From Micromonospora sp. NBC_01740 (GTDB taxonomy: Bacteria > Actinomycetota > Actinomycetes > Mycobacteriales > Micromonosporaceae), in assembly GCF_035920365.1 (NCBI RefSeq), contig NZ_CP109150.1:186001-250000 (forward strand): DNA of 64,000 bases, written 5' to 3'. The notes beneath the pieces are model-generated. The model saw nothing but the letters and a program-made list of their open reading frames with translations. It was not told where the DNA came from and did not search any database. Made by a program: the position numbers and the translations under genes. Every line of letters starts with the position of its first letter. Within the stretch, counting starts at the first letter, position 1. Positions 21,954 through 53,594 of this stretch are shown here, piece after piece.

Positions 21954-21985
21954 AGTGTAGAGCCCAGACCTGAACGATCGCTAAG
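21954..21985 (-). promoter_or_regulatory. icmA promoter with acyl-CoA operator
   Basis: Operator CTGAACGATCGCTAAG (21970-21985; 12 of 16 positions symmetric) lies 10 nt upstream of a -10-like TACACT (21959-21954, reverse strand). It therefore covers the -35 area. The same sequence class occurs at four other acyl-CoA promoters in the window. Confidence 0.65.
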
Positions 21986-22024
21986 TAAGTTCGTACCGGC
22001 AGGTAACCTGGGCCGCCGGACGCG

Positions 22025-22438
22025 TCACGCGACGGGCGCGGCGGGACCGCCCAGGGCCACGTCGTCGACCCTGATGTTGACCTCGTCGACCCGCAGCCCG
22101 TACGCCTCGACCGCCTCGGCGACCTGCGCCCGGACCTCGGCGGTCACCTGCGGCACCGCGCGGCCGGCCTCGATCACGATGACCAGGTTGACCACCGCCG
22201 CGCCGTTGGTGACGTGGGCCGAGCAGCCGCGCCGGGCGTCGCCGACCTGGTCGAGCCCGACCTTGTCGAGCACCGCGTTGAAGAACCGGGCCACGTCCCC
22301 GCCCAGCTCGACCACCCCGGGCACGGACCGCGCGGCGGCCACCGCGATCTTCTCCACCACCTCGTCGGAGACGAGCGTCGTCCCGCCCGGCACCGCGTCC
22401 GGCGTCACCGACAGCTCCTGCGTCGCCTCGTCGCCCAT
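22025..22438 (-). CDS. Asp23/Gls24-family envelope stress protein
   Basis: 137 residues. The core (about 20-125) matches the Asp23/Gls24 family: VSDEVVEKIAVAAARSVPGV, later VNLVIVIEAGRAVPQVTAEV and YGLRVDEVNIRVDDV. These soluble proteins associate with the envelope and are linked to alkaline/general stress in Gram-positives; their biochemical role is not known. The residues between contain a Cys (RRGCSAHV). GGGGAG lies just before the ATG at 22438. It stands between meaB and icmA on the same strand, 75 bp after meaB; no functional link to them is evident. Confidence 0.85.
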   Translation of the reverse strand: MGDEATQELSVTPDAVPGGTTLVSDEVVEKIAVAAARSVPGVVELGGDVARFFNAVLDKVGLDQVGDARRGCSAHVTNGAAVVNLVIVIEAGRAVPQVTAEVRAQVAEAVEAYGLRVDEVNIRVDDVALGGPAAPVA

Positions 22439-22512
22439 CGTCTCCCCACTCCGCCGCGCACCGCCCCACGCCGACCGTGGAGCGGTGCGAGCGTACTAGC
22501 TCGACGGGCCCC

Positions 22513-23517
22513 TCAGGAGCCGAGTTGGGAGAGCAGTTCGTCGGCCGCCGCGTACGGGTCGAGGGCGCCCTCGGCCACCTTCGCGGCGAGCGCCGGCAGC
22601 TCCGTACCGTCGCGCAGGGAACCGATCCGGGCGCGGAGCACGCCCAGCGCGATCGCCTCGACCTCGGCGGCGGCCCGCGCCTCCTGGCGGCGGCGCAGCT
22701 CGCCGTGCTCGACCAGCCAGCCACGGTGCTTGTCGATGGCGGCGGCGATGTCGTCGATCCCCTCGCCCCGGGAGGCGATCGCGCGCACCACCTGCGGCCG
22801 CCAGTCGCCCGGGCCGCGCTCGCCCAGGGCGATCATGCCCTGGATGTCGCGGTAGGTGGCGTCGGCGCCGTCCCGGTCGGCCTTGTTGACCACGAAGACG
22901 TCGGCGATCTCCAGGATGCCGGCCTTGACCGCCTGGATGGCGTCGCCCATGCCCGGGGCGAGCAGCACCAGCGTGGTGTCGGCCAGCGAGGCGACCTCCA
23001 CCTCGGCCTGCCCGACGCCCACGGTCTCCACCAGCACGACGTCGCAGCCGGCGCCCTCCAGCACCCGCACCGCCTGCGGCGTGGCGGCCGACAGCCCGCC
23101 GAGGTGGCCCCGGCTGGACATCGACCGGATGTAGACGCCCGGGTCGGTGGCGTGGTCCTGCATCCGGACCCGGTCGCCGAGGATCGCCCCGCCCGTGAAC
23201 GGGCTGGACGGGTCGATGGCCAGCACGCCCACCCGGTGGCCGCGGGCGCGCAGCGCCCGGACCAGCTCGTTGGTGGTGGTCGACTTACCCACCCCGGGTG
23301 AGCCGGTCAGCCCGACCACCTGGGCCTGGCCGGCGTACGGCGCGAGGGCCGCCGCGATCCGCGGCAGCGTCTCGTCGCCCGACTCGACCAGGGTGATCAG
23401 CCGGGCCACCGCGCGCGGATCGCCCGCGCGGGCCCGCTCGACCAGCATCGGCACGTCCCGGCTGCGGCGCACCGGGGGTGCGCCGGCTGCCGGGACGCCG
23501 TCGACGATCTCGCTCAC
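22513..23517 (-). CDS. meaB: Mutase-protecting GTPase MeaB
   Basis: G3E-type P-loop GTPase (ArgK/MeaB family), 334 residues, which gates cofactor loading and protects B12-dependent acyl-CoA mutases. Seen: Walker A GLTGSPGVGKSTT (near residue 70), switch regions AIDPSSPFTGGAILGDRVRM and VETVGVGQAEVEV, and the NKAD guanine motif. It starts at GTG 23517, 33 nt after the thiolase stop, so it is likely co-transcribed with thiolase from the operator-bearing promoter at 24783-24798. Partners in the window are IcmA and the ethylmalonyl-CoA mutase. Confidence 0.93.
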   Translation of the reverse strand: MSEIVDGVPAAGAPPVRRSRDVPMLVERARAGDPRAVARLITLVESGDETLPRIAAALAPYAGQAQVVGLTGSPGVGKSTTTNELVRALRARGHRVGVLAIDPSSPFTGGAILGDRVRMQDHATDPGVYIRSMSSRGHLGGLSAATPQAVRVLEGAGCDVVLVETVGVGQAEVEVASLADTTLVLLAPGMGDAIQAVKAGILEIADVFVVNKADRDGADATYRDIQGMIALGERGPGDWRPQVVRAIASRGEGIDDIAAAIDKHRGWLVEHGELRRRQEARAAAEVEAIALGVLRARIGSLRDGTELPALAAKVAEGALDPYAAADELLSQLGS

Positions 23518-23550
23518 TGTGCTGCCTCTACGGGATCGGCCGGCCGGCGG

Positions 23551-24750
23551 TCAGTGACCGCTCTCGCCGGGGGCCGGGACGTGGATGATCAGAGCGTCGC
23601 CCTGGCCGCCGCCGCCGCAGAGCGCCGCGGCGCCCGTGCCGCCGCCCCGGCGCTTGAGCTCCAGCGCGAGGGTGAGCACCAGCCGGGCGCCGGACATGCC
23701 GATCGGGTGGCCCAGCGCGATCGCCCCGCCGTTGACGTTGACCTTGTCCGGGCTGATCCCGAGGTCACGGGTGGACTGGATGCCCACCTGGGCGAACGCC
23801 TCGTTGATCTCGATGAGGTCCAGGTCCTCGATGCCGAGCCCGCCCTTCTTGAGGGCGTGCTGGATCGCGTTGGACGGCTGCGAGTGCAGGGAGTTGTCCG
23901 GGCCGGCGACGTTGCCGTGCGCGCCGATCTCGGCCAGCCAGGTCAGCCCCAGCTCCTTGGCCTTGGCCTTGCTCATGACGACCACCGCGGCGGCGCCGTC
24001 GGAGATCGGCGAGGAGCTGCCGGCGGTGATGGTGCCGTCCTTGGCGAACGCCGGGCGCAGCTTCGCCAGCGACTCGACGGTGGTGTCCGGGCGGATCCCC
24101 TCGTCCTCGCTGATCACCAGCGGGTCGCCCTTGCGCTGCGGGATGACCACCGGGGTGATCTCGTCGGCGAAGTGGCCGTTCTTCTGCGCGGCGGCGGCCC
24201 GCTGGTGGCTGGCCGCGGCGAACGCGTCCTGCTCCTCGCGGGTGATGCCGTGCCGCCCGTTGTGCCGCTCGGTGGACTCACCCATCGCGCAGCTGTCCCA
24301 GGCGTCGGTGAGCCCGTCGAGCGCCATGTGGTCCTTGACCACCACGTCGCCGTACTTGTAGCCGCCGCGCTGGCCGAGCAGCAGGTGCGGGGCGTTGGTC
24401 ATGGACTCCATGCCGCCGGCGACGACGATGTCGAACTCGCCGGCGCGGATCAGCTGGTCGGCCAGGGCGATCGCGTCCAGGCCGGAGAGGCAGACCTTGT
24501 TGACGGTCAGCGCCGGCACGGACATCGGGATGCCGGCCTCGACCGCCGCCTGGCGGGCCGGGATCTGTCCGGCGCCGGCCTGGAGCACCTGCCCCATGAT
24601 CACGTACTGGACCTGCTCGGGGGCGACGCCGGCCCGCTCGAGCGCCGCCTTGATCGCGACGCCACCGAGCCTGGTCGCGGGGAGGTCCTTGAGGTTGCCC
24701 AGCAGGCGCCCCATCGGGGTCCGCGCGCCGCTGACGATCACCGAAGCCAT
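23551..24750 (-). CDS. Acetyl-CoA C-acetyltransferase (thiolase)
   Basis: Thiolase II family, 399 residues, normal length. Condenses two acetyl-CoA to acetoacetyl-CoA or runs the reverse thiolysis. Catalytic residues: nucleophile Cys in [13 protein letters not shown], His in [16 protein letters not shown], and second Cys in [10 protein letters not shown] near the C-terminus. The ATG at 24750 has CGGAGGC upstream. It is divergent from the epimerase gene over 61 bp that hold an operator and a -10-like TACAGG (24779-24774). In the ethylmalonyl-CoA pathway this would be the first step. Confidence 0.93.
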
Positions 24751-24782
24751 GCCTGCCTCCGAGGGGGTGCCGACCTGTACGC

Positions 24783-24805
24783 CTTAACGATTGTTCGGTC
24801 AGACT
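24783..24805. promoter_or_regulatory. Divergent thiolase/epimerase promoters with acyl-CoA operator
   Basis: Operator CTTAACGATTGTTCGG (24783-24798; 10 of 16 symmetric) sits one base before CAGACT (24800-24805), which is 6 nt from the epimerase ATG (leaderless layout). On the other strand it is 3 nt before TACAGG (24779-24774) of the thiolase gene. One bound repressor could block both. Confidence 0.6.
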
Positions 24806-24811
24806 AGCGCC

Positions 24812-25285
24812 ATGGCTGAGAACTCCCCCGTCGAGACCGCTGCCGACTATGTCACAGACATCGGCCTGCGCCGCATCGACCACGTCGGGGTCGCCGTCGC
24901 CGACCTGGACGCCGCGATCGACTTCTACCAGCGCACCTTCGGGATGCGCTGCGTGCACACCGAGGTGAACGCCGAGCAGGGCGTACGCGAGGCGATGCTG
25001 GCCGTCGGCCCGGACGCCGAGGGCGGCTGCGTGCAGCTGCTCGCCCCGCTGACCCCGGAGTCGACCATCGCCAAGTTCCTCGACAAGAAGGGCCCCGGCG
25101 TGCAGCAGGTGGCGTACACCGTCGAGGACATCGACGCCGCCTGCGCGAAGCTGCGCGAGCGGGGCGTGAAGCTGCTCTACGACACCCCGAAGCGCGGCAC
25201 CGCCAACTCGCGGGTCAACTTCGTCCACCCGAAGGACGCCGGCGGGGTGCTGGTCGAACTCGTCGAGCCTGCCGCCGGGCACTGA
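24812..25285 (+). CDS. Methylmalonyl-CoA/ethylmalonyl-CoA epimerase
   Basis: 157 residues, VOC fold. It interconverts the R and S forms of methylmalonyl-CoA; homologues in ethylmalonyl-CoA pathway bacteria also act on ethylmalonyl-CoA. Metal ligands expected for the family are visible: His in RIDHVGVAV (near residue 26), Gln in GCVQLLAP (near 78), His in GVQQVAYTV-equivalent position replaced by Gln, and Glu in GVLVELVEP. The ATG at 24812 has no ribosome site but lies 6 nt after a -10-like CAGACT, so a leaderless start is likely. A TTG at 24791 would extend it into the operator and is unlikely. Confidence 0.9.
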   Translation: MAENSPVETAADYVTDIGLRRIDHVGVAVADLDAAIDFYQRTFGMRCVHTEVNAEQGVREAMLAVGPDAEGGCVQLLAPLTPESTIAKFLDKKGPGVQQVAYTVEDIDAACAKLRERGVKLLYDTPKRGTANSRVNFVHPKDAGGVLVELVEPAAGH

Positions 25286-25291
25286 TCCCCA

Positions 25292-25326
25292 CCTCCGGCT
25301 CCCGCCGACCGGGCGGGGGCCGGAGG
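25292..25326 (+). terminator. Hairpin terminator after the epimerase gene
   Basis: A 15-bp stem (25292-25306 with 25312-25326, one mismatch) closes a 5-nt loop, 7 nt after the epimerase stop. Two further GGCCGGAGGCCAC-like copies (about 25353 and 25384) follow, making a short degenerate repeat. Confidence 0.65.
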
Positions 25327-25486
25327 CCACACTCCATCTGGCGAAAAGGGGCCGGAGGCCACTCCCCGGCTGGTGGGAGAGGGGTCGGAGGCCCCGCCGA
25401 GCGCGCCGGTGCGTGGTTCCACCGCCGCCCGGGCACCTCCACGCATCGGCCAATGCAGTTTTTCACAGAGGACTTCCGGCCCTACC

Positions 25487-25498
25487 TACTCTTCAGTA
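25487..25498. promoter_or_regulatory. Possible operator upstream of ccr
   Basis: TACT-CTTC-AGTA is a small inverted repeat about 130 bp upstream of the ccr start, in the least GC-rich part of the 344-bp gap. It differs from the operator shared by the other acyl-CoA genes. Weak evidence on its own. Confidence 0.25.
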
Positions 25499-25629
25499 AC
25501 GTCCCGCCCCACAGGAGCGCGGCCGGTACCGGATGTGTCGGATGCCGACATGGCGGTGGGCCGCACCGACGCCGACGATGGCAGCACCCAGGCCCGCGTG
25601 GGCGGGGTGCGGACGAACGGGAGGTCGAC

Positions 25630-26985
25630 GTGCAGGACATCCTCGAAGCGATCATGGCGGCGGAGGGATCCGACCAACCCGCACGGGAGCTCGCCGGGAT
25701 CGCCGGCCTGCCGGTACCCGAGACGTACCGCGGCGTGGTGGTGCGCGCCGACGAGACCCGGATGTTCGACGGCCTGGCCACCCGGGACAAGGACCCGCGC
25801 AAGGCGCTGCACGTGCAGGAGGTGCCGACGCCGGAACTGGGGCCGGGCGAGGCGCTGGTCGCGGTGATGGCGAGCGCGATCAACTACAACACGGTCTGGA
25901 CCAGCATCTTCGAGCCGCTGCCGACCTTCAAGTTCCTCGAGCGCTACGGCCGGCTCTCCGAGCTGACCCGCCGGCACGACCTGCCGTACCACGTGGTGGG
26001 CTCCGACGCCGCCGGCGTGGTGCTGCGCACCGGGCCCGGGGTGACGAAGTGGAAGGCCGGCGACGAGGTCGTCGCGCACTGCCTCTCCGTGGAGCTGGAG
26101 GACGCGGCCGGGCACGACGACACCATGCTGGATCCGCAGCAGCGGATCTGGGGCTTCGAGACCAACTTCGGCGGCCTGGCCGAGCTGTGCGTGGTCAAGG
26201 CCAACCAGCTGATGCCCAAGCCGCGCCACCTGAGCTGGGAGGAGGCGGCCAGCCCGGGGCTGGTCAACTCGACGGCGTACCGGCAGTTGGTGTCGCACCA
26301 CGGGGCGAACATGAAGCAGGGCGACGTGGTGCTGATCTGGGGCGCCTCCGGCGGCCTGGGCGGCTACGCCACCCAGATGGCGCTCAACGGCGGCGCGATC
26401 CCGGTCTGCGTGGTCTCCTCGCCGGAGAAGGCGGAGCTGTGCCGGAGGATGGGCGCCGAGCTGGTGATCGACCGCACCGCCGAGGGCTTCCGCTTCTGGA
26501 AGGACGAGCAGACCCAGGACCAGGACGAGTGGCGCCGCTTCGGCGAGCGCATCCGCGAGCTGACCGGCGGCGACGACCCGGACATCGTCTTCGAGCACCC
26601 CGGCCGGGAGACCTTCGGCGCCAGCGTCTATGTGGCCAAGAAGGGCGGCACCATCGTCACCTGCGCCTCCACCAGCGGCTACCTGCACCAGTACGACAAC
26701 CGCTACCTCTGGATGCATCTGAAGCGGATCATCGGCAGCCACTTCGCCAACTACCGCGAGGCGTGGGAGGCCAACCGGCTCGTGGCACTGGGCAAGGTCC
26801 ACCCCACCGTGTCGAAGACCTACGCGCTGGAGCAGACCGGCCAGGCCGCGTACGAGGTGCACCGCAACGCGCACCAGGGCAAGGTCGGCGTCCGCTGCCT
26901 GGCCCCGACGGACGGGCTCGGCGTACGCGACCGCGAGCTGCGCTCCCGGCACGAGGACGCGATCAACCGGTTCCGCGGCCACTGA
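25630..26985 (+). CDS. ccr: Crotonyl-CoA carboxylase/reductase
   Basis: Medium-chain reductase that reductively carboxylates crotonyl-CoA to (2S)-ethylmalonyl-CoA using NADPH and CO2; 451 residues, normal length. Visible features: CO2-pocket residues in AINYNTVW (Asn near 85), the Phe-Glu pair in WGFETNFGG and His in IGSHFANYREAWEAN. The NADPH fold is at IWGASGGLGGYATQ. These fit Ccr rather than plain enoyl reductases, which lack the Phe-Glu/His set. The GTG at 25630 has GGGAGG 5 nt upstream. It supplies ethylmalonyl-CoA for the epimerase and ethylmalonyl-CoA mutase, or as polyketide extender. Confidence 0.95.
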   Translation: MQDILEAIMAAEGSDQPARELAGIAGLPVPETYRGVVVRADETRMFDGLATRDKDPRKALHVQEVPTPELGPGEALVAVMASAINYNTVWTSIFEPLPTFKFLERYGRLSELTRRHDLPYHVVGSDAAGVVLRTGPGVTKWKAGDEVVAHCLSVELEDAAGHDDTMLDPQQRIWGFETNFGGLAELCVVKANQLMPKPRHLSWEEAASPGLVNSTAYRQLVSHHGANMKQGDVVLIWGASGGLGGYATQMALNGGAIPVCVVSSPEKAELCRRMGAELVIDRTAEGFRFWKDEQTQDQDEWRRFGERIRELTGGDDPDIVFEHPGRETFGASVYVAKKGGTIVTCASTSGYLHQYDNRYLWMHLKRIIGSHFANYREAWEANRLVALGKVHPTVSKTYALEQTGQAAYEVHRNAHQGKVGVRCLAPTDGLGVRDRELRSRHEDAINRFRGH

Positions 26986-27083
26986 CCCGAGGGACGAGGC
27001 GCCGTCGCCCATTGCGGTGAACGGCGATTGCCTTTCCGCCTAGTGTCTGACGCTCATTCGAGCGATGCCGACCATGGCGCGAC

Positions 27084-34149: not shown

Positions 34150-35199
34150 TCAGTCCCAGGTCTCCGGGTCACCGGGATCGGTGGCGACCTGCGCCCCGCC
34201 CAGCAGGACGGCGGCGTCCGCCTCGGTGAAGTCCCCGTGTGACCAGCTGAAATCGACGATCAGGTGGGCCTTAGGGATGCCGAGCAGCTCCAACTGGTCG
34301 CCCCGCGGGTAGAGGTAGGCGGCCCGGCCCCCGATCGTCCGGTTGCCCGCCGTACGGCCGGTGACCATCGAGCGCGCGTAGTCGAACGCGACACGCGTCT
34401 CCGCTTCCCCGGGCCCGTTCACCACCAGCGACATGTGCAACGTGGCGGGGAAGGACCCCGCATCGACGGTGCACTGGTCCAGCCGGGCGCCGGCGGGCAG
34501 CGTGGTGAGCCGCACCGGCGCGACGCAGCGGCGCGCCTCACCCAACCGGAGGGCGCCGACCGCCACCTCGATCTCCTGGGCGGTCACGGCGGTCACGGCG
34601 GCCCGGGCGTACAGGCCGGGGGCCGGTTGCCAGAGCCGGATCCAGATGGAAGTGCCGCCCTCCCGGTGCAGGCGATCGGTGCCGTCGAAGACCGTCCCGC
34701 CCGTCATCCCGGTGGCCCCCGGCGGCAGCCCTTCGACCGCGTACTCCCACAGCGCGTCGGCGGAACGGGCCAGCGCGACGCTCACCGGCCGGCCACCGTC
34801 GACCTCGACGCGGATGCTCTCCACGCCGAACCCGACGTGCCAGCCCCGGTAGCGGGCGCGGGCCGGGTCGAACCCGAAGTGCAGTACCTGCGGATCCGTG
34901 CCGACCAGGTCGGGCCGGGCGGCCGCGCCGGGGACGTTCTCCAGCCGGGGCGGCGCGGCGGTGGCGGCGTCCGGCGCGGCGGCGTCCGGCGGGCGTACCC
35001 GCTCCGGCAGGCCCACGCCGGTGGCGACGGTGAACCCGAGCACCGCCGCCACGCCCAGCGCGAGGCCCGCGCCGGCCCGACGGCGACGGCGACGGACCCG
35101 TCCCCCGGCGACGGCACGGGAGGTGAGCCGGTCGGTGTCGACCGTCCCCTCGGCGCGTTCCCGCAGCGTCCGTACGATCCGTTCGTCGAGGTCGGTCAC
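34150..35199 (-). CDS. Single-pass membrane protein, candidate anti-sigma partner
   Basis: 349 residues: a cytoplasmic N-terminal ~45 residues (TDLDERIVRTLRERAEGTVD), an Arg cluster, one transmembrane helix (about 46-65, AGLALGVAAVLGFTVATGVG) and a large outer domain with two Cys (RRCVAP and LDQCTVD). It starts at GTG 35199, overlapping the end of the sigma factor gene by 4 nt (GTGA), so the two are translationally coupled. Coupling and topology suggest an anti-sigma factor or signal sensor, but there is no recognisable zinc anti-sigma motif (HxxxCxxC). A much longer open frame extends upstream but overlaps the sigma gene and is not real. Confidence 0.78.
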   Translation of the reverse strand: MTDLDERIVRTLRERAEGTVDTDRLTSRAVAGGRVRRRRRRAGAGLALGVAAVLGFTVATGVGLPERVRPPDAAAPDAATAAPPRLENVPGAAARPDLVGTDPQVLHFGFDPARARYRGWHVGFGVESIRVEVDGGRPVSVALARSADALWEYAVEGLPPGATGMTGGTVFDGTDRLHREGGTSIWIRLWQPAPGLYARAAVTAVTAQEIEVAVGALRLGEARRCVAPVRLTTLPAGARLDQCTVDAGSFPATLHMSLVVNGPGEAETRVAFDYARSMVTGRTAGNRTIGGRAAYLYPRGDQLELLGIPKAHLIVDFSWSHGDFTEADAAVLLGGAQVATDPGDPETWD

Positions 35200-35690
35200 G
35201 GCCGGCTCCCGTTCGTCGCCGGGACGCCGTGGCGCTCCCGGAGGTTGTTGAGCGCCCGCATGGCATGGGTGCGGACGGTGACCGGCGAGCAGCCGAGGAT
35301 CTGGGCGATGGTCGCGTCGTCGAGGTCCTCGTAGTAGCGCAGCACGAGCACCGCCCGCTGGCGGTCCGGCAGCCCGAGGATGAGCCGCCACATGGCGTCC
35401 CGGTCGGCCGTCTCGCCGCCGAGGTCGCCGTGCTGGGGCCGTTCCGCGAAGTCGGCGGTGGCCAGCTCCCGGTTCGACCGCCGGCGCCACCAGGAGTTGT
35501 TGGCGTTGACCAGCATCCGGCGCACGTACACGTCCGGCCGGTCCACCCGGGCGATCCGCCGCCAGTGCACGTACGCGCGGGTCAGGACGTCCTGGGTGAG
35601 GTCCTCGGCCCGGTGCTCGTCGCCCGTCAGCAGCCGGGCCAGCCGCATCAGGGCGGGGCCTCGGCTGCCGACGTACTCCTCGAAGGTCAC
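35196..35690 (-). CDS. ECF sigma factor, SigE family
   Basis: RNA polymerase sigma factor of 164 residues, with region 2 (about 10-75; AEDLTQDVLTRAYVHWRRI is the -10 recognition/core-binding helix) and region 4 (about 105-155; LPDRQRAVLVLRYYEDLDDA and the helix-turn-helix LGCSPVTVRTHAMRAL). MTFEEYVGSRGPALMRLARLL is the typical opening of the actinobacterial SigE group. It starts at GTG 35690; a ribosome site is not obvious. The next gene, overlapping by 4 nt, is the likely regulator. Targets unknown. Confidence 0.93.
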   Translation of the reverse strand: MTFEEYVGSRGPALMRLARLLTGDEHRAEDLTQDVLTRAYVHWRRIARVDRPDVYVRRMLVNANNSWWRRRSNRELATADFAERPQHGDLGGETADRDAMWRLILGLPDRQRAVLVLRYYEDLDDATIAQILGCSPVTVRTHAMRALNNLRERHGVPATNGSRP

Positions 35691-35730: not shown

Positions 35731-37518
35731 TCAGCGACGGGTGTGGTCGCGGAAGCCCCGGCCGCTCTTGCGCCCCAGGTAGCCGGCCGTGACGAGGTGC
35801 TCCAGCAGCGGCGCGGGCGCGAAGCCCGGCTCGCGCAGCTCCAGGTAGAGCTCCCGCTGGATGGCCAGCGAGACGTCCAGGCCGACCACGTCGAGCAGCT
35901 CGAACGGGCCCATCGGGTAGCCGCAGCCCAGCTTCATGGCGTGGTCGATGTCGTCGGCGGTGGAGTAGCTCGCCTCCAGCATCTTCACGGCGTCGTTGAG
36001 GTACGGGAAGAGCAGCGCGTTGACGATGAAGCCGGACCGGTCGCCGCAGACCACGCCCGTCTTGCCCAGCGCGGCACAGACCGCGCGGGCGGTGGCGGTG
36101 GTCTCCGTCGAGGTGCGGATGGTCTCCACGACCTCGACCAGCGGCATGAGCGGCGCCGGGTTGAAGAAGTGCAGCCCGATCACGTCGGCGGGCCGCTGGG
36201 TGGCCATCGCGACGTCGATCACCGGCAGCGATGAGGTGGTGGTGGCGAGCACGACGCCCGGCTTGCAGATCTCGTCGAGGCTGGCGAAGAGGGCCTTCTT
36301 GACGCTCAGCTCCTCGACCACGGCCTCGACGACGAGGTCGACGTCGGCGAGGTGGTCCAGGGTGGCCGACCAGTTGATCCGGCCGAGCGCGGCGTCCCGG
36401 TCGGCCTCGCTGAGCTTGCCGCGCACCACGCCCTTGTTGAGCGAGGTCCTGACCGCCTCGAAGACCTTGGCGGACTTCTCTGCGCCCCGGGTCACCGAGA
36501 CGACCTCGTAGCCGGCCTTCGCGAAGACCTCGATGATGCCGGTGGCCATCGTCCCGGATCCGACGACGCCGACCTTCGCGATCGCGGCGGCGCCGCCGAG
36601 CGCGGCCTCCGTCGCCACCGGCGTCTGCTCGTCGGGTACGACGACCGGGGAGCCCGGCCGCTCGTAGGTGTAGAAGCCCCGGCCGGACTTGCGGCCGAGC
36701 AGCCCGGCGGTGACCATCTGCTTGATCAGCGGCACCGGGGCGTGCCGGCGGTCCCGCCCGCCGCGCCGGTACATGGTGTCGAGGATCTCGTACGCGGTGT
36801 CCAGGCCGATCAGGTCCATCAGCGCCAGCGGGCCCATGGGCAGGCCGCAGCCGAGCTTCATGGCCGCGTCGATGTCCTCGCGGGTGGCGTAGTGCGCCTC
36901 GAACATCCCGACAGCGTGGTTGAGGTAGCCGAAGAGCAGCGCGTTGGCGATGAAGCCGGCCCGGTCGCTGATGGTGACGTCGACCTTGCCGAGCCGCTTG
37001 CAGAGCGCCTCCACGTCGGCGACCACGTCGGCGGAGGTGACCACCGTCCGGACCACCTCGACCAGCTTCATCACCGGGGCGGGGTTGAAGAAGTGGATGC
37101 CGATCACCTGGTTGGGACGGCTGGTGGCGACGGAGATCTCGGTGACACTCAGCGACGAGGTGTTGGTGGCCAGGATCGCCTCGGGCTTGCAGACCCGGTC
37201 CAGCTCGGCGAAGATCCGCTGCTTGAGGTCCAGGTGCTCGGGCACCGCCTCGATGACCAGGTCGACCGCGTGCAGCGCGTTCAGCCCGACGGCGAACCGT
37301 ACGCGGCTCAGCAGCGCGTCCCGGTCGGCCTCGGCGAGCTTGCCCTTGGCCACGGCCCGGTCCGTCGACCCGGTGAGGATGGCCCGGCCGCGTTCCAGCG
37401 CGTCCTCGGAGACCTCCACCGCGACGACGTCGACCCCGTTGCGCGCGAATACCTCGACGATGCCGGCACCCATGGTGCCCAGACCCACAACGCCCACGCT
37501 GGTGAAATCACGCGCCAC
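35731..37518 (-). CDS. 3-hydroxyacyl-CoA dehydrogenase, tandem fusion of two modules
   Basis: 595 residues made of two full 3-hydroxybutyryl-CoA dehydrogenase-like modules (about 1-285 and 315-595), each with an NAD fold and a C-terminal helical domain. Module 1: GLGTMGAG, NTSSL, catalytic His in IGIHFFNPAPVM, Asn in GFIANALL. Module 2: GSGTMATG (third Gly of the dinucleotide motif is Ala), TTSSL, IGLHFFNPAPLM, GFIVNALL. Both keep the catalytic His and Asn. LGRKSGRGF closes both modules. No crotonase domain is present. It starts at GTG 37518 with GAGGAGG upstream, and an operator plus -10 box lies at 37550-37569. Confidence 0.92.
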   Translation of the reverse strand: MARDFTSVGVVGLGTMGAGIVEVFARNGVDVVAVEVSEDALERGRAILTGSTDRAVAKGKLAEADRDALLSRVRFAVGLNALHAVDLVIEAVPEHLDLKQRIFAELDRVCKPEAILATNTSSLSVTEISVATSRPNQVIGIHFFNPAPVMKLVEVVRTVVTSADVVADVEALCKRLGKVDVTISDRAGFIANALLFGYLNHAVGMFEAHYATREDIDAAMKLGCGLPMGPLALMDLIGLDTAYEILDTMYRRGGRDRRHAPVPLIKQMVTAGLLGRKSGRGFYTYERPGSPVVVPDEQTPVATEAALGGAAAIAKVGVVGSGTMATGIIEVFAKAGYEVVSVTRGAEKSAKVFEAVRTSLNKGVVRGKLSEADRDAALGRINWSATLDHLADVDLVVEAVVEELSVKKALFASLDEICKPGVVLATTTSSLPVIDVAMATQRPADVIGLHFFNPAPLMPLVEVVETIRTSTETTATARAVCAALGKTGVVCGDRSGFIVNALLFPYLNDAVKMLEASYSTADDIDHAMKLGCGYPMGPFELLDVVGLDVSLAIQRELYLELREPGFAPAPLLEHLVTAGYLGRKSGRGFRDHTRR

Positions 37519-37549: not shown

Positions 37550-37569
37550 GTTAACGACCATTAAGGTTA
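37550..37569 (-). promoter_or_regulatory. Promoter with acyl-CoA operator, fused dehydrogenase gene
   Basis: GTTAACGACCATTAAG (37550-37565) is the third member of the operator set. TAACCT (37569-37564, reverse strand) is the best -10 and overlaps the operator by 2 bp, so the operator covers the -10 to +1 area. The rest of the gap to 37732 holds a 17-bp ATCAGCCCACCGTGTCG-like repeat (about 37712-37758) that runs into the end of the next gene. Confidence 0.6.
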
Positions 37570-46578: not shown

Positions 46579-48585
46579 TCAGCGCAGGCCGTTGGCCTCC
46601 CGGACCACGGTCACCAGGTCGTCGATGATCCCCGTCAGGGCGAAGTCCTTCGGCGTGAAGACCCGGGCCACCCCGGCGGCGCGGAGCTGCTCCGCGTCGC
46701 CGGCGGGGATGATCCCGCCGACCACCACCGGCAGGTCCGACCGGCCGGCGGCGCGCAGGCCGTCCAGCACCGCCGGTACCGCCGCCAGGTGCGAGCCGGA
46801 GAGGACCGAGAGGCCGACCAGGTCCACGTCCTCCTCGACGGCGGCGGCGACGATCTGCCCGGCGGTCAGCCGGATGCCCTGGTAGACCACCTCGAAGCCG
46901 GCGTCGCGGGCGCGTACCGCGATCTGCTCCGCGCCGTTGGAGTGCCCGTCGAGGCCGGGCTTGCCGACCAGCAGCCGCAGCCGGCCGCTGCCCAGCTCGC
47001 GGGCGGTGGCGGCGACGCGCGCCCGGACGGCGGCCAGGGTGGCGTCCCCGCCGGCCCCGGCGGCGCCGGTCAGGCCGGTGGGCGCCCGGTACTCGCCGAA
47101 GACCTGGCGCAGCGCGCCGGCCCACTCGCCGGTGGTCACCCCGGCCCGCACGCACTCCAGCGTCGCCGGCATCAGGTTCGTCGTGGTCGCGGCGTCCGCG
47201 CGCAGCCGGGCCAGTGCCGCGTCGACAGCCGAGTCGTCCCGCCCGGCCCGCCACCGGCGTACGGCCTCAGTGGCCGCCGCCTCGACGGCCGGGTCGACCT
47301 GCTCGACGGACTCGGCGCCGGCGGCGGTCAGCGGCGACGGCTCGGTCTCGGTGAACCGGTTGACGCCGACCACCACGTCGGCGCCGGATTCCATCCGGCG
47401 GCGCCGCTCGGCCAGCGAGGCGACCAGGGCGCTCTTGAGGTAGCCGGTCTCGACGGCCGCGACGACGCCGCCCATCTCCAGCACCTTCTCCAGCTCGACC
47501 CGGGCCCCGGTGACGATCTCCTCGACCAGCGCCGTCATCACGTGCGAGCCCTCGAACAGGTCCGGGTACTCCAGCAGGTCCGACTCGTACGCGAGCACCT
47601 GCTGCATGCGCAGCGACCACTGCTGGTCCCACGGCCGGGGCAGGCCGAGCGCCTCGTTCCAGGCGGGCAGTTGCACGGCACGGGCCCGGGCGTCCCGGGA
47701 GAGGGTCACGCCGAGCATCTCCAGCACGATGCGCTGGATGTTGTTCTCCGGCTGCGCCTCGGTCAGGCCCAGCGAGTTGACCTGCACGCCGTAGCGGAAC
47801 CGCCGCTGCTTCGGGTTCTCCACCCCGTAGCGCTCGCGGGTGATCTCGTCCCAGAGCGCCCCGAAGGCGCGCATCTTGGCGATCTCCTCGACGAAGCGCA
47901 CCCCGGCGTTGACGAAGAAGGAGATCCGCTGCACGACGTCGCCCATCCGCTCGGCGGGCACCTGCCCCGAGTCACGGACCGCGTCGAGCACCGCGACGGC
48001 GGTGGAGAGCGCGAAGCCGACCTCCTGCACCGGCGTCGCGCCGGCCTCCTGGAGGTGGTACGAGCAGATGTTCACCGGGTTCCAGCGCGGCATCTCGCGC
48101 AGCGCGTACGCGACGACGTCGGCGGTCAGCCGCAGCGACGCGGCCGGCGGGAAGATGTGGGTGCCCCGGGAGAGGTACTCCTTGATGATGTCGTTCTGCG
48201 TGGTGCCGGCGCAGCGGGACAGCTCCGCGCCCTGCTCCTCGCCGACCGTGCCGTAGAGGGCGAGCAGCCACATCGCCGGCGCGTTGATGGTCATGGACGT
48301 GTTCATGTCGGCCAGCGGGATGCCGTCGAAGAGGGCCCGCATGTCGCCGAGGTGCGCCACCGGCACACCGACCCGACCCACCTCGCCGGCGGCGAGCTCG
48401 TGGTCGGGGTCGTAGCCGGTCTGGGTCGGCAGGTCGAAGGCGACCGACAGGCCGGTCTGCCCCTTCGCCAGGTTGCGGCGGAAGAGCGCGTTCGTCGCCG
48501 CGGCCGAGCTGTGCCCGGCGTAGGTGCGCATCACCCAGGGGCGGTCGCGCTCGGGCAGCCGGCCGGGGAGAGCCTTCTCGTCCAT
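46579..48585 (-). CDS. ecm: Ethylmalonyl-CoA mutase (Ecm/MeaA type)
   Basis: B12-dependent mutase of 668 residues converting ethylmalonyl-CoA to methylsuccinyl-CoA. The catalytic domain opens with RPWVMRTYAGHSSAAATN, GLSVAFDLPTQTGYDPDH and GTTQNDIIKEYLSRGTH, which match the MeaA/Ecm branch rather than methylmalonyl-CoA mutase. The C-terminal cobalamin domain carries KPGLDGHSNGAEQ (lower-ligand His548) and VGLSVLSGSH. There is no separate subunit. ATG 48585 follows TAGACT by 6 nt, a leaderless layout; an operator overlaps that -10 box. Partners: Ccr, epimerase, MeaB and the adenosyltransferase in this window. Confidence 0.93.
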   Translation of the reverse strand: MDEKALPGRLPERDRPWVMRTYAGHSSAAATNALFRRNLAKGQTGLSVAFDLPTQTGYDPDHELAAGEVGRVGVPVAHLGDMRALFDGIPLADMNTSMTINAPAMWLLALYGTVGEEQGAELSRCAGTTQNDIIKEYLSRGTHIFPPAASLRLTADVVAYALREMPRWNPVNICSYHLQEAGATPVQEVGFALSTAVAVLDAVRDSGQVPAERMGDVVQRISFFVNAGVRFVEEIAKMRAFGALWDEITRERYGVENPKQRRFRYGVQVNSLGLTEAQPENNIQRIVLEMLGVTLSRDARARAVQLPAWNEALGLPRPWDQQWSLRMQQVLAYESDLLEYPDLFEGSHVMTALVEEIVTGARVELEKVLEMGGVVAAVETGYLKSALVASLAERRRRMESGADVVVGVNRFTETEPSPLTAAGAESVEQVDPAVEAAATEAVRRWRAGRDDSAVDAALARLRADAATTTNLMPATLECVRAGVTTGEWAGALRQVFGEYRAPTGLTGAAGAGGDATLAAVRARVAATARELGSGRLRLLVGKPGLDGHSNGAEQIAVRARDAGFEVVYQGIRLTAGQIVAAAVEEDVDLVGLSVLSGSHLAAVPAVLDGLRAAGRSDLPVVVGGIIPAGDAEQLRAAGVARVFTPKDFALTGIIDDLVTVVREANGLR

Positions 48586-48591
48586 GGCGGG

Positions 48592-48610
48592 AGTCTAAGT
48601 TACCGTTCAG
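48592..48610 (-). promoter_or_regulatory. ecm promoter: leaderless -10 overlapped by acyl-CoA operator
   Basis: On the reverse strand, CTGAACGGTAACTTAG (48610-48595) overlaps TAGACT (48597-48592), and the ATG follows after 6 nt. A bound protein would cover the -10 and transcription start. Confidence 0.65.
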
Positions 48611-48735
48611 TCACCAGAGCTGTGGAAAACCACACAGCTCCATGGAGCGGAAACCCGGGTGCGAAGCGCCCGACATGGGCGCGACCACCACACCCCGGCC
48701 GGCCCACCGCCGCGGCCAGGTCGCACACTTGACGC

Positions 48736-49580
<845 letters not shown>

Positions 49581-49584
<4 letters not shown>

Positions 49585-50426: not shown

Positions 50427-50446
50427 GGTCTGAGGAAGGGCCCCGG

Positions 50447-51403
50447 CTAACGCGTGGACGTCGTGAGCGCGACACCGAGCGGCGTACGCCAGTAGAGCAC
50501 CTCGCGCCCGGACCGCCGCTTGCCGACGGCGCCCGCGTCCAGCAGCACCCGCAGGTGGTCGCCCACCGTCCCGAGGGAGAGCCCGGTCACCGCCACGAGT
50601 TGCGAGGTGCTCAGCGGTGTGTCCAGCCGGACCAGGATGTCGGCCCGGTTCGCGCCGATCAGCCGGGCGAGCCCGTCGGGTGCCGGTGAGGTGGGATCGA
50701 CCAGGATCCCGCGCACCGGGTACACCATCCCGAACCGGGTCGGCCTGTCCCAGACCACCCAGCCGCGACGGCAGTGCGCCGGGAGGAAGACCAACTGCTC
50801 GGCCTCGTCCAGCGACAGCGGCGGCTCCGGGTAGTCGTTGACCTGGAGCCGACCGTCGCCCAGCCAGCACACGTTGCGGTTGAGGTCGGCGAACACCCCG
50901 GCCCAGCCGCCCGCGCTCAACGCGGCGGTGCGGGCCACGATGTCCGCCCGGAGCCGGCGTTCCCGCTCCGGCCACTCCGGCTCGACGGTGTGCGTCCAGA
51001 CCCAGTCGAGCAGCTCCACCACCTGCCCGGTGAGACCGTCCGCCAGCAGCTCGGCGGCGAGCGGCTCCGGGCGGGTGGCGCGCAGGTCGGCCCGGATCCG
51101 CTCGTCGGACAACCGCCCGACGGCTGCCAGCTCCGCCGCGAACGTCGGTTCCGGCGAGGCGGGCGCGACGGTGAGGAAGTCGGCGGTCCACCGGGGGTGG
51201 AACGACGCGGGCAGCAGCGCCCGGACCACCGGCCGACCGGCCAGCATCCGCCGGAACGCCGCGACGTGCGGCTCCCGCCAGGCCCGCTGCCACGGGCTAC
51301 GCGGGTCGTGCAGCGCGCGCAGCGCGGCGACCGTGTCGACCATCGGCGAGACCGTGAAGCGGCTGCGCGCGAGGAGATCCGACGGCACCTGCCAGACGGC
51401 CAT
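50447..51403 (-). CDS. ArsR-type winged-helix transcriptional regulator
   Basis: 318 residues. The helix-turn-helix is at the C-terminus (about 245-300): LSTSQLVAVTGLSLGTVGDHLRVLLDAGAVGKRRSGREV. The first ~230 residues are a larger sensor-like domain (TADFLTVAPASPEPTFAAEL...) of the actinobacterial DUF5937/ArsR group. No Cys metal site is visible. It diverges from an MFS transporter gene across 58 bp, so it likely controls that gene and itself. Ligand unknown. Confidence 0.85.
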   Translation of the reverse strand: MAVWQVPSDLLARSRFTVSPMVDTVAALRALHDPRSPWQRAWREPHVAAFRRMLAGRPVVRALLPASFHPRWTADFLTVAPASPEPTFAAELAAVGRLSDERIRADLRATRPEPLAAELLADGLTGQVVELLDWVWTHTVEPEWPERERRLRADIVARTAALSAGGWAGVFADLNRNVCWLGDGRLQVNDYPEPPLSLDEAEQLVFLPAHCRRGWVVWDRPTRFGMVYPVRGILVDPTSPAPDGLARLIGANRADILVRLDTPLSTSQLVAVTGLSLGTVGDHLRVLLDAGAVGKRRSGREVLYWRTPLGVALTTSTR

Positions 51404-51461
51404 GTTTCGCCTCCAGACGTAACTCTAGGAGATCCACCCGGCACCCCACACGATCGGGCCC

Positions 51462-52646
51462 GTGAGAACGTACGCAGATCTGTTCGCGGTCCGGGAGTTC
51501 CGCAACCTGTTCCTGGCGAACTGCGCGGGCATCGCGGCGCACACCACGTCGGCGCTGGCGCTGGGCTCGCTGACCTACGCGTCGACCGGCTCGGCGCTGC
51601 TCACCGCGCTGAGCATGTTCGGCGCGCCGCTCGCCGGCGTGCTCGGCAGCCTGACGTTGCTGTCGGCCGCGGACAGCCTGCCGCCCCGCCGGGCGCTGAC
51701 CTTCGCCGCCGTGCTGGTCGCCGCCGGAGCGGCACTCCAGGCGGTGCCCGGCCTGCCGCTGTGGGCCCGGTTCGCGATCATCTTCACCGGCGCGTACGTC
51801 GGCTCGATCACGGGCGGGGCCCGGTGGGCGCTGCTCACCGACATCCTGCCGACCGACGCCTACGTGCTGGGCAGGTCCACCATGAACACGAGCGTCGGGG
51901 CGATGCAGATCGCCGGCTTCGGGCTGGGCGGCGTCCTGTTGTTCTGGCTGGACCCGTACGAGGTGTTCCTGCTCGCGGCGGTGCTGCGGGCGGTGGCGGC
52001 GGCAGTCGGGTGGTTCGGCATCTCGGAGCGCCCGGCCCGGACCACCGCCCGGACGACGGTGGGGCGCACGCTCCGGGTGAACCGGGAACTGTGGACGGAT
52101 CCCGGCCGCCGCTCGCTCCTGCTCAACCTGTGGCTGCCGCCCGGCCTGGTCGTCGGCTGCGAGGCGCTGTTCGTGCCGTACGCCGGGGACCGCGCCGGCT
52201 TCCTCTACGCCGCCGCGGCCCTCGGCATGCTGGCGGGCGACGTCGTGGTGGGACGGTTCCTGCCCCCGGCCCGGCGCAACCGGCTGGTCCCCGCCCTGCG
52301 GCTGCTGCTCGTCCTGCCCTACCTGGCCTTCGCGCTGTCGCCGGCGCTGCCGCTGGCCATGCTGGTCGCGGTCGTCGCCTCGGTGGGCTTCGCCGCCGGG
52401 CTGCCGTTGCAGGAGCGCCTGATCGCCCACTCACCCATCGAGTTCCGGGGCCAGGTGCTGGGCCTGCAGCACAACGGGATGATGGCCGCGCAGGCGCTGT
52501 GTGCCGTGCTCGCCGGCACGGTCGCGGACCTGGTCCCGGCGGGCTGGGCCGTCGCGCTGCTCGCCACGGCGGCGCTGGCGGCCACGCTGATGCTCACCGC
52601 CGGGCTGCGGCGGACCGCCCCCGCGCCGGTGGAGGCGGTCCGCTGA
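51462..52646 (+). CDS. MFS transporter
   Basis: 394 residues with about 12 hydrophobic helices. VREFRNLFLANCAGIAAHTTSALALG at the start and GRTLRVNRELWTDPGRRSLL between the halves fit a drug-efflux-like MFS member. The canonical motif A is weak (loop 2-3: AADSLPPRRALT). GTG 51462 is the start. It is likely controlled by the divergent ArsR-type gene. Substrate unknown. Confidence 0.87.
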   Translation: MRTYADLFAVREFRNLFLANCAGIAAHTTSALALGSLTYASTGSALLTALSMFGAPLAGVLGSLTLLSAADSLPPRRALTFAAVLVAAGAALQAVPGLPLWARFAIIFTGAYVGSITGGARWALLTDILPTDAYVLGRSTMNTSVGAMQIAGFGLGGVLLFWLDPYEVFLLAAVLRAVAAAVGWFGISERPARTTARTTVGRTLRVNRELWTDPGRRSLLLNLWLPPGLVVGCEALFVPYAGDRAGFLYAAAALGMLAGDVVVGRFLPPARRNRLVPALRLLLVLPYLAFALSPALPLAMLVAVVASVGFAAGLPLQERLIAHSPIEFRGQVLGLQHNGMMAAQALCAVLAGTVADLVPAGWAVALLATAALAATLMLTAGLRRTAPAPVEAVR

Positions 52647-52678
52647 GCGGCCGGGCGACGTCGCGCCCCGGCTGCCCG

Positions 52679-53527
52679 TCAGTACGTGTAGAAGCCCTTG
52701 CCGCTCTTGCGCCCGAGGTCGCCGGCGGTGACCATGCGCTGGAGCAGCTCCGGCGGGAAGAACTTCTCGTCCGCCGTGTCGGTGTAGATGTTCTTCGAGG
52801 CGTGCAGCAGCACGTCCACGCCGGTCAGGTCCGTGGTGGCCAGCGGGCCCATGGCGTGACCGAAGCCGAGGCGGCAGGCGGTGTCCAGGTCCTCGGCCGA
52901 CACCACGCCCGACTCGACGAGCTTGACCGCCTCGACGACCAGGGCCGCGATCAGCCGGGTGGTGACGAAGCCCGCGATGTCCCGGTTGACCACCACGACC
53001 GTCTTGCCGATCTCCTCGGCGAACGACTTCGCCGTGGTCAGGGTCTCGTCGCTGGTCTTGTAGCCACGCACCAGCTCACAGAGCTTCATCATCGGCACCG
53101 GCGAGAAGAAGTGGGTGCCGACGACGGCCTCCGGGCGCTCGGTCACCGCGGCGATCTGCGTCACCGGGATGGCCGAGGTGTTGGTCGCGAGCACCGCGTC
53201 GGCCTTGCAGATCTTGTCCAGCGCGCGGAACACCTCGTGCTTGATCTCCAGCCGTTCGAAGACCGCCTCGACCACGATGTCCGCGTCGGCCGCCGCCTCC
53301 AGGTCGGTGGTGGGGGTGATCCGGCCCAGCGCCGCCTCGACCTCGGACGCCTCGATCCTGCCCTTCTCGGCGAACCTGGTCAGCGACTTCCGGATGCCGT
53401 CCATGCCCCGCCCGGTGGCCGCGTCGTCCAGGTCCCGCAGCGTCACCTGCCAGCCCGCCTGCGCCGCCACCTGGGCGATGCCCGCGCCCATCAGCCCGGC
53501 CCCGACGACCGCGAGTCGACCCGCCAT
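52679..53527 (-). CDS. 3-hydroxybutyryl-CoA dehydrogenase
   Basis: 282 residues. Interconverts acetoacetyl-CoA and 3-hydroxybutyryl-CoA. GAGLMGAGIAQ gives the NAD fold; catalytic His lies in VVGTHFFSPVPMM, Asn-equivalent in GFVTTRLIAAL is Thr, and C-terminal DLGRKSGKGFYTY is typical. GTHFFSPVPMMKL is characteristic of HbdA-like enzymes. ATG 53527 has GAGGGAGAAG upstream; the frame continues further without similarity. The operator at 53579-53594 suggests shared control with the other acyl-CoA genes. It would form step two of the ethylmalonyl-CoA pathway. Confidence 0.92.
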   Translation of the reverse strand: MAGRLAVVGAGLMGAGIAQVAAQAGWQVTLRDLDDAATGRGMDGIRKSLTRFAEKGRIEASEVEAALGRITPTTDLEAAADADIVVEAVFERLEIKHEVFRALDKICKADAVLATNTSAIPVTQIAAVTERPEAVVGTHFFSPVPMMKLCELVRGYKTSDETLTTAKSFAEEIGKTVVVVNRDIAGFVTTRLIAALVVEAVKLVESGVVSAEDLDTACRLGFGHAMGPLATTDLTGVDVLLHASKNIYTDTADEKFFPPELLQRMVTAGDLGRKSGKGFYTY

Positions 53528-53562
53528 CTGCTTCTCCCTCGCCTGATTGAGTGTCTGCCAGC

Positions 53563-53594
53563 ACCCTAGTCGGCGAGCCTGAACGGATGCTAAG
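53563..53594 (-). promoter_or_regulatory. Promoter with acyl-CoA operator, 3-hydroxybutyryl-CoA dehydrogenase
   Basis: CTGAACGGATGCTAAG (53579-53594) lies 10 nt upstream of TAGGGT (53568-53563, reverse strand), the same spacing as at icmA. Confidence 0.65.

What the first reader, a model, noticed from the sequence alone, without database searches (positions are those of the whole stretch)
21970..53594. Five matching operator-like palindromes define a scattered acyl-CoA/ethylmalonyl-CoA regulon
Seen: 16-bp sites CTGAACGATCGCTAAG (21970, icmA), CTTAACGATTGTTCGG (24783, thiolase/epimerase), GTTAACGACCATTAAG (37550, fused hydroxyacyl-CoA dehydrogenase), CTGAACGGTAACTTAG (48610-48595, ecm) and CTGAACGGATGCTAAG (53579, 3-hydroxybutyryl-CoA dehydrogenase). 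Consensus CTKAACGRNNNYTWAG. All five are within about 70 bp of a start codon, and all six genes served are in acyl-CoA metabolism. At icmA and 53.5 kb the site is exactly 10 nt upstream of a TANNNT -10 box; at ecm, the epimerase and 37.5 kb it touches or overlaps the -10. Known: TetR-family regulators of fatty-acid and acyl-CoA genes use short palindromes of this sort. Inferred: one repressor, encoded elsewhere, controls all units.
Basis: partly seen in the sequence, partly recalled or inferred. Interest (0 to 1): 0.82.

Follow-up and report, generated by a model that had tools for sequence, protein, structure and literature searches.

The report
Two acyl-CoA repressor regulons in Micromonosporaceae
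Short DNA switches beside scattered acyl-CoA genes of a soil actinomycete are real and conserved, but they appear to belong to two separate control systems, one of which probably traces to a known kind of repressor gene 1.3 million bases away.

Summary
The five sites exist. Four (icmA, thiolase/epimerase, fused hydroxyacyl-CoA dehydrogenase, hydroxybutyryl-CoA dehydrogenase) are one 16-bp palindrome, CTKARCGNNCGTTMAG ("class 1"), conserved in congeners (13 of 14 to 18 of 18) and, for the three promoters tested, in ten other genera of the family. Of six further genome hits tested in congeners, five are conserved (mccB, a biotin-carboxylase gene, ilvE, ppdK, an M24 peptidase) and one (pyrE) is not. 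The likely repressor is a TetR protein at G000:1514368-1514988 in the mccA-hmgL-mccB-fadE cluster, an apparent ortholog of AccR/BkaR: 20 of 42 Micromonosporaceae genomes carry the operator before this gene, against 0.25% of resampled sequences, though 0 of 5 in the window's own genus do. Other families have outer base G and Arg/Lys in the recognition helix; Micromonosporaceae mostly C, with His. The fifth site, ecm, is misregistered by 4 bp: its CTTAG end is part of the -10 box, and the palindrome there, GTGACTGAACGGTAAC, is of a second class, GTTACYGNNCRGTAAC. So two operator classes, probably two regulators. DNA binding is not shown.

The parts
21970..21985 (-). Class-1 operator CTTAGCGATCGTTCAG before icmA (ATG at 21916), 10 nt upstream of the TACACT -10 box
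   Evidence: 18 of 18 congeners score >=14; 10 of 10 other genera
21992..22007 (-).
   Evidence: score >=11 in 15 of 18 congeners (the matrix holds this G000 site); >=14 in 3 of 10 other genera
20228..21916 (-). icmA-like acyl-CoA mutase large subunit (MM_CoA_mutase; no B12-binding match)
24783..24798 (.). Class-1 operator CTTAACGATTGTTCGG in the divergent thiolase/epimerase promoter
   Evidence: 15 of 15 congeners; 10 of 10 other genera
23551..24750 (-). Acetyl-CoA acetyltransferase-type thiolase
24812..25285 (+). Methylmalonyl-CoA epimerase, ATG 13 nt after the operator
   Evidence: (TIGR03081 above cut-off)
25485..25500 (+).
   Evidence: 17.5 with a matrix holding no ccr site; mostly GCTACCGTTCAGTAAC in congeners; all 11 congener loci where ccr was found score >=17.6; G019 27.9, G020 28.5
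25453..26985 (+). Crotonyl-CoA carboxylase/reductase (ccr) open frame; the true start is probably downstream of the operator (in-frame candidates from 25630 on)
   Evidence: (TIGR01751 610.8 bits, above cut-off)
37550..37565 (-). Class-1 operator CTTAATGGTCGTTAAC before the fused 3-hydroxyacyl-CoA dehydrogenase; CTTAGCGGCCGTTCAG-like in congeners
   Evidence: 13 of 14 congeners >=14; 8 of 9 in other genera; also scores 14.9 as class 2
35731..37518 (-). Fused (two-copy) 3-hydroxyacyl-CoA dehydrogenase
48599..48614 (-).
   Evidence: 20.6 with a matrix holding no ecm site; 14 of 14 congeners
   Evidence: TAA or TAC in place of TAG in some congeners
46579..48585 (-). Ethylmalonyl-CoA mutase-type mutase (ecm): mutase and B12-binding domains
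53579..53594 (-). Class-1 operator CTTAGCATCCGTTCAG before 3-hydroxybutyryl-CoA dehydrogenase; arms conserved, centre variable
   Evidence: 16 of 17 congeners
52679..53527 (-). 3-hydroxybutyryl-CoA dehydrogenase

Best explanation
Four of the five sites are the operator of a TetR-family repressor apparently orthologous to AccR (Streptomyces) and BkaR (mycobacteria), encoded 1.3 Mb away at G000:1514368-1514988 in the mccA-hmgL-mccB-fadE cluster. A dimer most likely binds the 16-bp palindrome CTKARCGNNCGTTMAG next to or on the -10/-35 region and blocks transcription; release by a short-chain acyl-CoA is inferred from AccR. The regulon covers icmA, thiolase and methylmalonyl-CoA epimerase, two hydroxyacyl-CoA dehydrogenases, mccB (and probably fadE behind it), a biotin-carboxylase gene, ilvE, ppdK and an M24 peptidase. 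In Micromonosporaceae the outermost operator base has mostly changed from G to C, together with Arg/Lys to His in the recognition helix. The fifth site (ecm) belongs to a second operator class, GTTACYGNNCRGTAAC, shared with ccr and the upstream icmA element and probably read by another, unidentified regulator. Shown: the operators, their conservation, the class split, and the operator before the TetR gene in relatives. Inferred: binding, repression, ligand, number of proteins.
For: Conservation in congeners and other genera: icmA 10/10, thiolase 10/10, fused dehydrogenase 8/9, against 0.76% of 1047 control windows. Further sites mccB, biotin carboxylase, ilvE, ppdK kept in 4 of 4 congeners amid diverged flanks; M24 in 2 of 2 orthologs found in four genomes. 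Regulator: a core matrix made only from G000 target sites finds the operator within 200 nt upstream of the TetR gene in 20 of 42 Micromonosporaceae genomes, against 21 of 8400 resampled upstreams; 9 of 12 orthologs of other families have it, with outer G in 32 of 32 half-sites and YRHF or YKHF in 12 of 12 helices; Micromonosporaceae have outer C in 30 of 40 and LYHHF in 42 of 42 (part). The TetR gene neighbours carboxylase, HMG-CoA-lyase-like and acyl-CoA dehydrogenase genes; in two Streptomyces its best match lies beside a carboxyl-transferase gene, in the one tested also an acyl-CoA dehydrogenase gene. The AccR motif GTTAA-N6-TTAAC and target accD1A1-hmgL-fadE4 are reported in PMC10933834 (passages); BkaR's thiolase target fadA4 in PMC3920632 (passages). 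Class split.
Against: In the window's own genus the TetR gene has no class-1 site within 200 nt upstream (0 of 5 genomes). Weak matches genome-wide are not above control. One strong hit, before pyrE, is not conserved (0 of 4). The search pattern was drawn up after one search had already shown several of the further places. The G-to-C/Arg-to-His change is one split on the tree; 7 of 40 Micromonosporaceae half-sites end in G, and one site in Actinophytocola just outside the counted stretch, GTTAGCGGTCGTTAAG, ends in C on one side. AccR's own sequence was not compared; its paper is not held. The best NCBIfam model for the TetR (SACE_7040 family) scores 228.4, below its cut-off of 250. An ortholog of the fused dehydrogenase in G019 has a class-2 site. 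No binding or expression data.
Confidence: 0.8

Rival explanations
1. One TetR protein reads both palindrome classes (same length; they differ mainly at position 1, C against G, and position 5, A/G against C), so the reader's single regulon including ecm is right in effect.
For: The BkaR core GTTA(N)T(N4)A(N)TAAC fits the class-2 site GTTACTGATCGGTAAC at all fixed letters but one. A mixed site, GTTACCGATCGTTAAC, stands before ecm in Rhizocola. icmA carries both classes. The window's fused-dehydrogenase site also scores 14.9 as class 2, and its ortholog in G019, another family, has GTTACCCGTCAGTAAC.
Against: Within the family class-1 targets do not drift to class 2: it reaches 14 at 0 of 10 thiolase and 0 of 9 fused-dehydrogenase promoters of other genera. 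At icmA both elements are kept 22 bp apart in 15 of 18 congeners. The 39 Streptomyces/Kitasatospora ecm upstreams have no class-2 site although the three such genomes tested have an AccR-type TetR with GTTAA-type sites; but many of those upstreams share recurring 16-mers that look like coding sequence, so ecm may lack its own promoter there and this point is weak.
Confidence: 0.2
2. Class-1 sites are read by another acyl-CoA TetR of this genome; the operator before the accR-like gene in relatives only shows cross-control.
For: 52 TetR_N matches in the genome, with 150 of 202 candidates scored, so some may be missed; no class-1 site before the candidate in its own genus.
Against: Of the 52 TetR upstreams scanned, only the 293189 gene's own tandem palindrome scores above 12 for class 1; orthologs of the candidate carry the operator in many genera, and the helix residue changes together with the operator's outer base.
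Confidence: 0.12
3. The sites are chance matches or promoter sequence with no regulator.
Against: 16-bp islands, with conserved arms and a free centre at 53.5 kb, in diverged flanks, conserved across genera and at five of six further genes tested.
Confidence: 0.02

Closest known systems
AccR regulon, Streptomyces avermitilis (TetR; 16-nt palindrome GTTAA-N6-TTAAC), as described in review PMC10933834 (passages read)
   Same: Apparent TetR ortholog in the same genomic setting (accD1/accA1-hmgL-fadE); 16-bp palindrome with TTAA...TTAA-like core; the carboxylase cluster is a target.
   Different: Outermost base mostly C instead of G, and His instead of Arg in the helix. The targets here hold icmA, epimerase/thiolase, hydroxyacyl-CoA dehydrogenases, ilvE, ppdK and an M24 peptidase, which are not in the review's list (accD1A1-hmgL-fadE4, echA8, echA9, fadE2).
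BkaR (MSMEG_4718/Rv2506), mycobacteria, PMC3920632 (passages read)
   Same: TetR repressor of the accD1-accA1-fadE19 operon and of the thiolase gene fadA4; 16-bp palindrome; operator before its own gene, as in 20 of 42 Micromonosporaceae genomes.
   Different: Core GTTA(N)T(N4)A(N)TAAC, two copies in its own promoter; no operator before the TetR gene in the window's genus.
PccD, Saccharopolyspora and Mycolicibacterium (passages of PMC10933834 and PMC11596240)
   Same: [quoted passage not shown] the Mycolicibacterium protein is stated to be similar to BkaR (68%) and AccR (45%).
   Different: The motif quoted for S. erythraea (t/aTGACGg/cTGt/cTGt/a) is not this palindrome.
Regulators of the ethylmalonyl-CoA pathway in proteobacteria: CcrR (recalled, not looked up) and RamB (PMC10370305, search listing only)
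   Same: Control of ethylmalonyl-CoA-pathway genes.
   Different: Other phylum; motifs not compared. The class-2 operator was not matched to any named regulator.

Membership tests
AccR/BkaR-type regulator and regulon | TetR_N DNA-binding domain | tested here: met
   64.8 bits, over cut-off
AccR/BkaR-type regulator and regulon | Gene beside an acyl-CoA carboxylase (accD1/accA1), hmgL, fadE cluster | tested here: met
   two Streptomyces matches lie beside a carboxyl-transferase gene, one of them shown with an acyl-CoA dehydrogenase gene on the other side
AccR/BkaR-type regulator and regulon | Carboxylase operon carries the operator | tested here: met
   site 1518305 before mccB; 4 of 4 congeners
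AccR/BkaR-type regulator and regulon | 16-bp palindrome with the published outer G (GTTAA-N6-TTAAC) | tested here: not met
   Core kept, but outer base C in 30 of 40 half-sites before Micromonosporaceae TetR genes, G in 7; other families G in 32 of 32. Hence filed as a variant.
AccR/BkaR-type regulator and regulon | Operator before its own gene (reported for BkaR) | tested here: inconclusive
   20 of 42 family genomes and 9 of 12 genomes of other families yes; window's genus 0 of 5
AccR/BkaR-type regulator and regulon | Sequence orthology to the characterised AccR protein | not tested
   AccR's sequence and paper were not at hand; orthology rests on setting and operator
AccR/BkaR-type regulator and regulon | Binding of the operator and release by short-chain acyl-CoA | not testable with these tools
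   needs protein
Single regulon of all five reader sites | All five sites are the same palindrome in the same register | tested here: not met

The most novel reading that the evidence does not exclude
Two layered repressors run acyl-CoA flow in Micromonosporaceae: an AccR-type protein whose operator was re-specified (outer G to C with Arg to His) and whose regulon spread to isobutyryl-CoA mutase, epimerase, branched-chain transamination and pyruvate phosphate dikinase; and a second, undescribed regulator with operator GTTACYGNNCRGTAAC, found at ecm and ccr promoters in several actinobacterial families, as the ethylmalonyl-CoA-pathway switch. icmA is the gene where both meet.
Probability: 0.5. 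Interest if true: 0.65.

Novelty: new variant of a known kind. Interest (0 to 1): 0.5.

Why it matters
Short-chain acyl-CoA units feed polyketide antibiotics in actinomycetes, and passages seen here report that removing AccR- or PccD-type repressors raises yields in other genera. Here a specific repressor gene and a target list are proposed for a family where two paper searches listed no such study. The paired change of one helix residue and one operator base is a cheap test of how TetR specificity drifts. The class-2 operator at ccr and ecm gives a handle on how actinobacteria control the ethylmalonyl-CoA pathway; three paper searches listed no paper whose title or abstract opening names an actinobacterial regulator of it, but most subscription papers are not held.

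Tried and rejected
A loose palindrome (CTNARCGNNCGYTNAG, up to 2 mismatches) gave 547+547 places against 543+543 for the reversed control and was dropped. Rejected candidate sites: pyrE 1644836 (0 of 4 congeners); the class-2-like element before mccA (0 of 4 congeners reach 14). Not followed: 32854 beside an AMP-binding gene, which seems to overlap its start; 790217 before an LTD-domain gene, 5045418, and 7009833, the last with no coding frame by my GC test and no Rfam match nearby; the other one-mismatch places were not looked at one by one. A regulator inside the window was sought: no TetR_N match lies there; among the window genes scanned, a sigma-70-type factor at 35196-35690 and a weak ArsR-type match at 50447-51403 were seen (not all window genes were scanned). 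Seven TetR genes were compared in four congeners (five of them printed): 1672658 keeps nested palindromes of another make-up, 293189 keeps its own palindrome, 734392 and 2269050 show nothing convincing; the class-2 regulator stays unidentified.

Matrix caveats: the matrices contain the G000 sites of mccB, the biotin-carboxylase gene, the acyl-CoA dehydrogenase, the thioesterase and the SDR gene, and those contain G000 sites of the tested genes, so these calls measure conservation, not discovery. The class-2 matrix holds no ecm and no ccr site; the core matrix holds no TetR-promoter site.
Full report
WHAT WAS CLAIMED AND WHAT IS THERE. All five 16-mers are at the stated places, 9 to 53 nt from start codons. 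The served genes are an acyl-CoA mutase large subunit, a thiolase, methylmalonyl-CoA epimerase, a two-copy 3-hydroxyacyl-CoA dehydrogenase, a mutase with B12 domain (ecm) and a 3-hydroxybutyryl-CoA dehydrogenase. The case rests on conservation.

FAMILY. The window is G000:C1:186001-250000 of a 7.32-Mb single contig, 72.4% GC in the window. Its family, f1 in the tool, contains two genomes whose TetR match has the same contig number and coordinates as in Catellatospora bangladeshensis and Rhizocola hellebori, both Micromonosporaceae. The genus is not named.

CLASS 1. In congeners the upstream stretches show conserved 16-bp islands; the output was cut in the middle. With the class-1 matrix, sites score 14 or more at icmA in 18 of 18 congeners examined, thiolase 15 of 15, fused dehydrogenase 13 of 14 (the miss scores 13.8), hydroxybutyryl-CoA dehydrogenase 16 of 17 (the miss 13.1). 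Eighteen congeners were known; those without the gene or without 150 upstream bases in the fetched DNA are not in these numbers. At the fused dehydrogenase G000's own letters differ from its congeners', so that per-base conservation is only 0.71 there (rank 82 of 135 windows), and at thiolase the flanks are coding and as conserved as the site (0.96, rank 25); icmA (0.99, rank 2), and the free centre between conserved arms at 53.5 kb, are the clearest footprints. In ten other genera: icmA 10 of 10, thiolase 10 of 10, fused dehydrogenase 8 of 9 (the tenth genome had no listed match), against 0.76% of 1047 windows from the same loci.

FURTHER SITES. The pattern CYKARCRNNCGTTMAG, drawn up after one search had shown several of the places, has seven exact places: three in the window (the 37.5-kb site does not match it exactly), and mccB (1518305), ilvE (2986309), the gap between a chitinase and an M24 peptidase gene (4988710) and one before pyrE (1644836) (pyrE named from its translation). 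Among the one-mismatch places are a biotin-carboxylase gene (2360722) and ppdK (7210664). Counts at up to one mismatch are not above control (35 against 30), so most one-mismatch places may be noise. In four congeners the mccB, biotin-carboxylase, ilvE and ppdK sites are kept 4 of 4; M24 in 2 of 2 orthologs found in the four genomes; pyrE 0 of 4.

REGULATOR. The genome has 52 TetR_N matches (150 of 202 candidates scored), none inside the window. One, 1514368-1514988, sits directly upstream of a biotin carboxylase gene and an HMG-CoA-lyase-like gene; 3.3 kb after its end come the class-1 site, the carboxyl-transferase gene mccB and an acyl-CoA dehydrogenase gene. That resembles the setting of AccR in Streptomyces, whose reported operator is GTTAA-N6-TTAAC (PMC10933834, passages). 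In two Streptomyces genomes the best match of this TetR lies beside a carboxyl-transferase gene, with two such sites near the gap. I then fetched the gene from 40 of the 119 genomes with a match among 121, one or two per genus and none of the window's genus, and added the Catellatospora and Rhizocola loci. With a core matrix made only from G000 target sites, 20 of these 42 have the operator within 200 nt upstream of the TetR gene; Markov-resampled upstreams give 21 of 8400. In the window's genus it is absent (0 of 5). Of the 16 genomes, 12 best matches from other families were used (two genomes are of the family, one gave only a weak match and was left out, one gave none): 9 of 12 have the operator.

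SPECIFICITY CHANGE. The recognition helix reads LYHHF in 42 of 42 family proteins and 5 of 5 proteins of the genus, and LYRHF (8), IYRHF (2) or LYKHF (2) in the 12 of other families. The outermost operator base is C in 30 of 40 half-sites of the family (G 7, T 2, A 1) and G in 32 of 32 elsewhere. A further site in Actinophytocola, GTTAGCGGTCGTTAAG, lay just outside the counted stretch and ends in C on one side. This is what a change of contact would look like, but it is a single split in the tree, and that the residue touches that base is inferred from TetR structures in general (recalled).

CLASS 2. Four bases away is GTGACTGAACGGTAAC. One congener (G015) has TTTACCCGTCAGTAAC: centre replaced, arms kept. 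Of 80 ecm loci fetched (the 80 best of a capped list), 79 had enough upstream DNA: 26 of 40 outside Streptomyces/Kitasatospora score 10 or more, 0 of 39 inside, against 0.7% of 1498 control windows. ccr has a class-2 site at 25485 (17.5), conserved in all 11 congener loci where ccr was found in the fetched stretches, and strong in G019 and G020; ccr was not found in the stretches of G003, G006, G008 and G012. icmA carries a class-2 element whose centre is 22 bp from the class-1 centre, score 11 or more in 15 of 18 congeners. Other class-2 matches of 11 or more in the window are the 37.5-kb class-1 site itself (14.9) and 41112 (11.2, not followed); 0.2 are expected by chance. In the genome class-2 matches number 44 against 6 for the reversed pattern and include an acyl-CoA dehydrogenase gene (4 of 4 congeners), a DUF4442 gene that I take for a thioesterase (3 of 4 at 14 or more) and an SDR gene (4 of 4). 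Its regulator was not found.

MECHANISM. Sites touch or flank the core promoter (icmA and 53.5 kb: 10 nt upstream of the -10), so steric repression is the simplest reading. AccR ligands named in PMC8546615 (passages) are methylcrotonyl-, propionyl- and acetyl-CoA. Class-1 genes lead branched-chain amino acids and short acyl-CoAs towards methylmalonyl-CoA and, through ppdK, perhaps gluconeogenesis; induction by a short acyl-CoA would make sense. This is inference.

COMPARISON AND NOVELTY. It works like, and by setting and operator appears to be, an AccR/BkaR regulon. The published outer base was tested and not met in this family, so I file it as a variant. BkaR's thiolase target fadA4 (PMC3920632, passages) parallels the thiolase here. 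Searches for such a regulon in Micromonospora and for control of ccr in actinobacteria listed nothing that by title or abstract opening describes either; only CC-licensed papers are searched, and the AccR paper itself is not held.

Noticed in passing
window 48621-48636 (before ecm); similar TTTTTCACA before ccr, just upstream of 25485: TGTGTGGTTTTCCACA is as conserved as the operator in 14 congeners (0.95), and a TTTTCACA element recurs upstream of the ccr class-2 site in the 11 congeners shown. Possibly a -35 region or a second regulator's site shared by the two ethylmalonyl-CoA genes.
   Followed up: no
L154-L158 (icmA orthologs of G024, G022, G029, G020, G026, other families): In these genomes the icmA promoter has a different palindrome around CTAGGACGTCCTA (with variants such as GTAGGACGACCTAC) instead of class 1, so icmA seems to have changed regulators between families.
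   Followed up: no
L267 (G000:292500-294000): A TetR gene about 43 kb past the window has two tandem perfect palindromes CTGACCGATCGGTCAG before it; at least one copy is conserved in 4 of 4 congeners.
   Followed up: partly
L261 (G000:1672000-1673500): TetR gene with nested palindromes (GTTACTC..GCGTAAC and CTTACGC..GAGTAGG) in a conserved promoter; a weak candidate for class-2-like recognition.
   Followed up: partly
window 22025-22438: An Asp23-family gene lies between the MeaB-type gene and the icmA-like gene.
   Followed up: no
G003, G008, G012 (congeners): No ecm-like match lies near icmA in these genomes and ccr was not found in their fetched stretches, while the class-1 sites remain; the ethylmalonyl-CoA genes may have been lost there.
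   Followed up: partly
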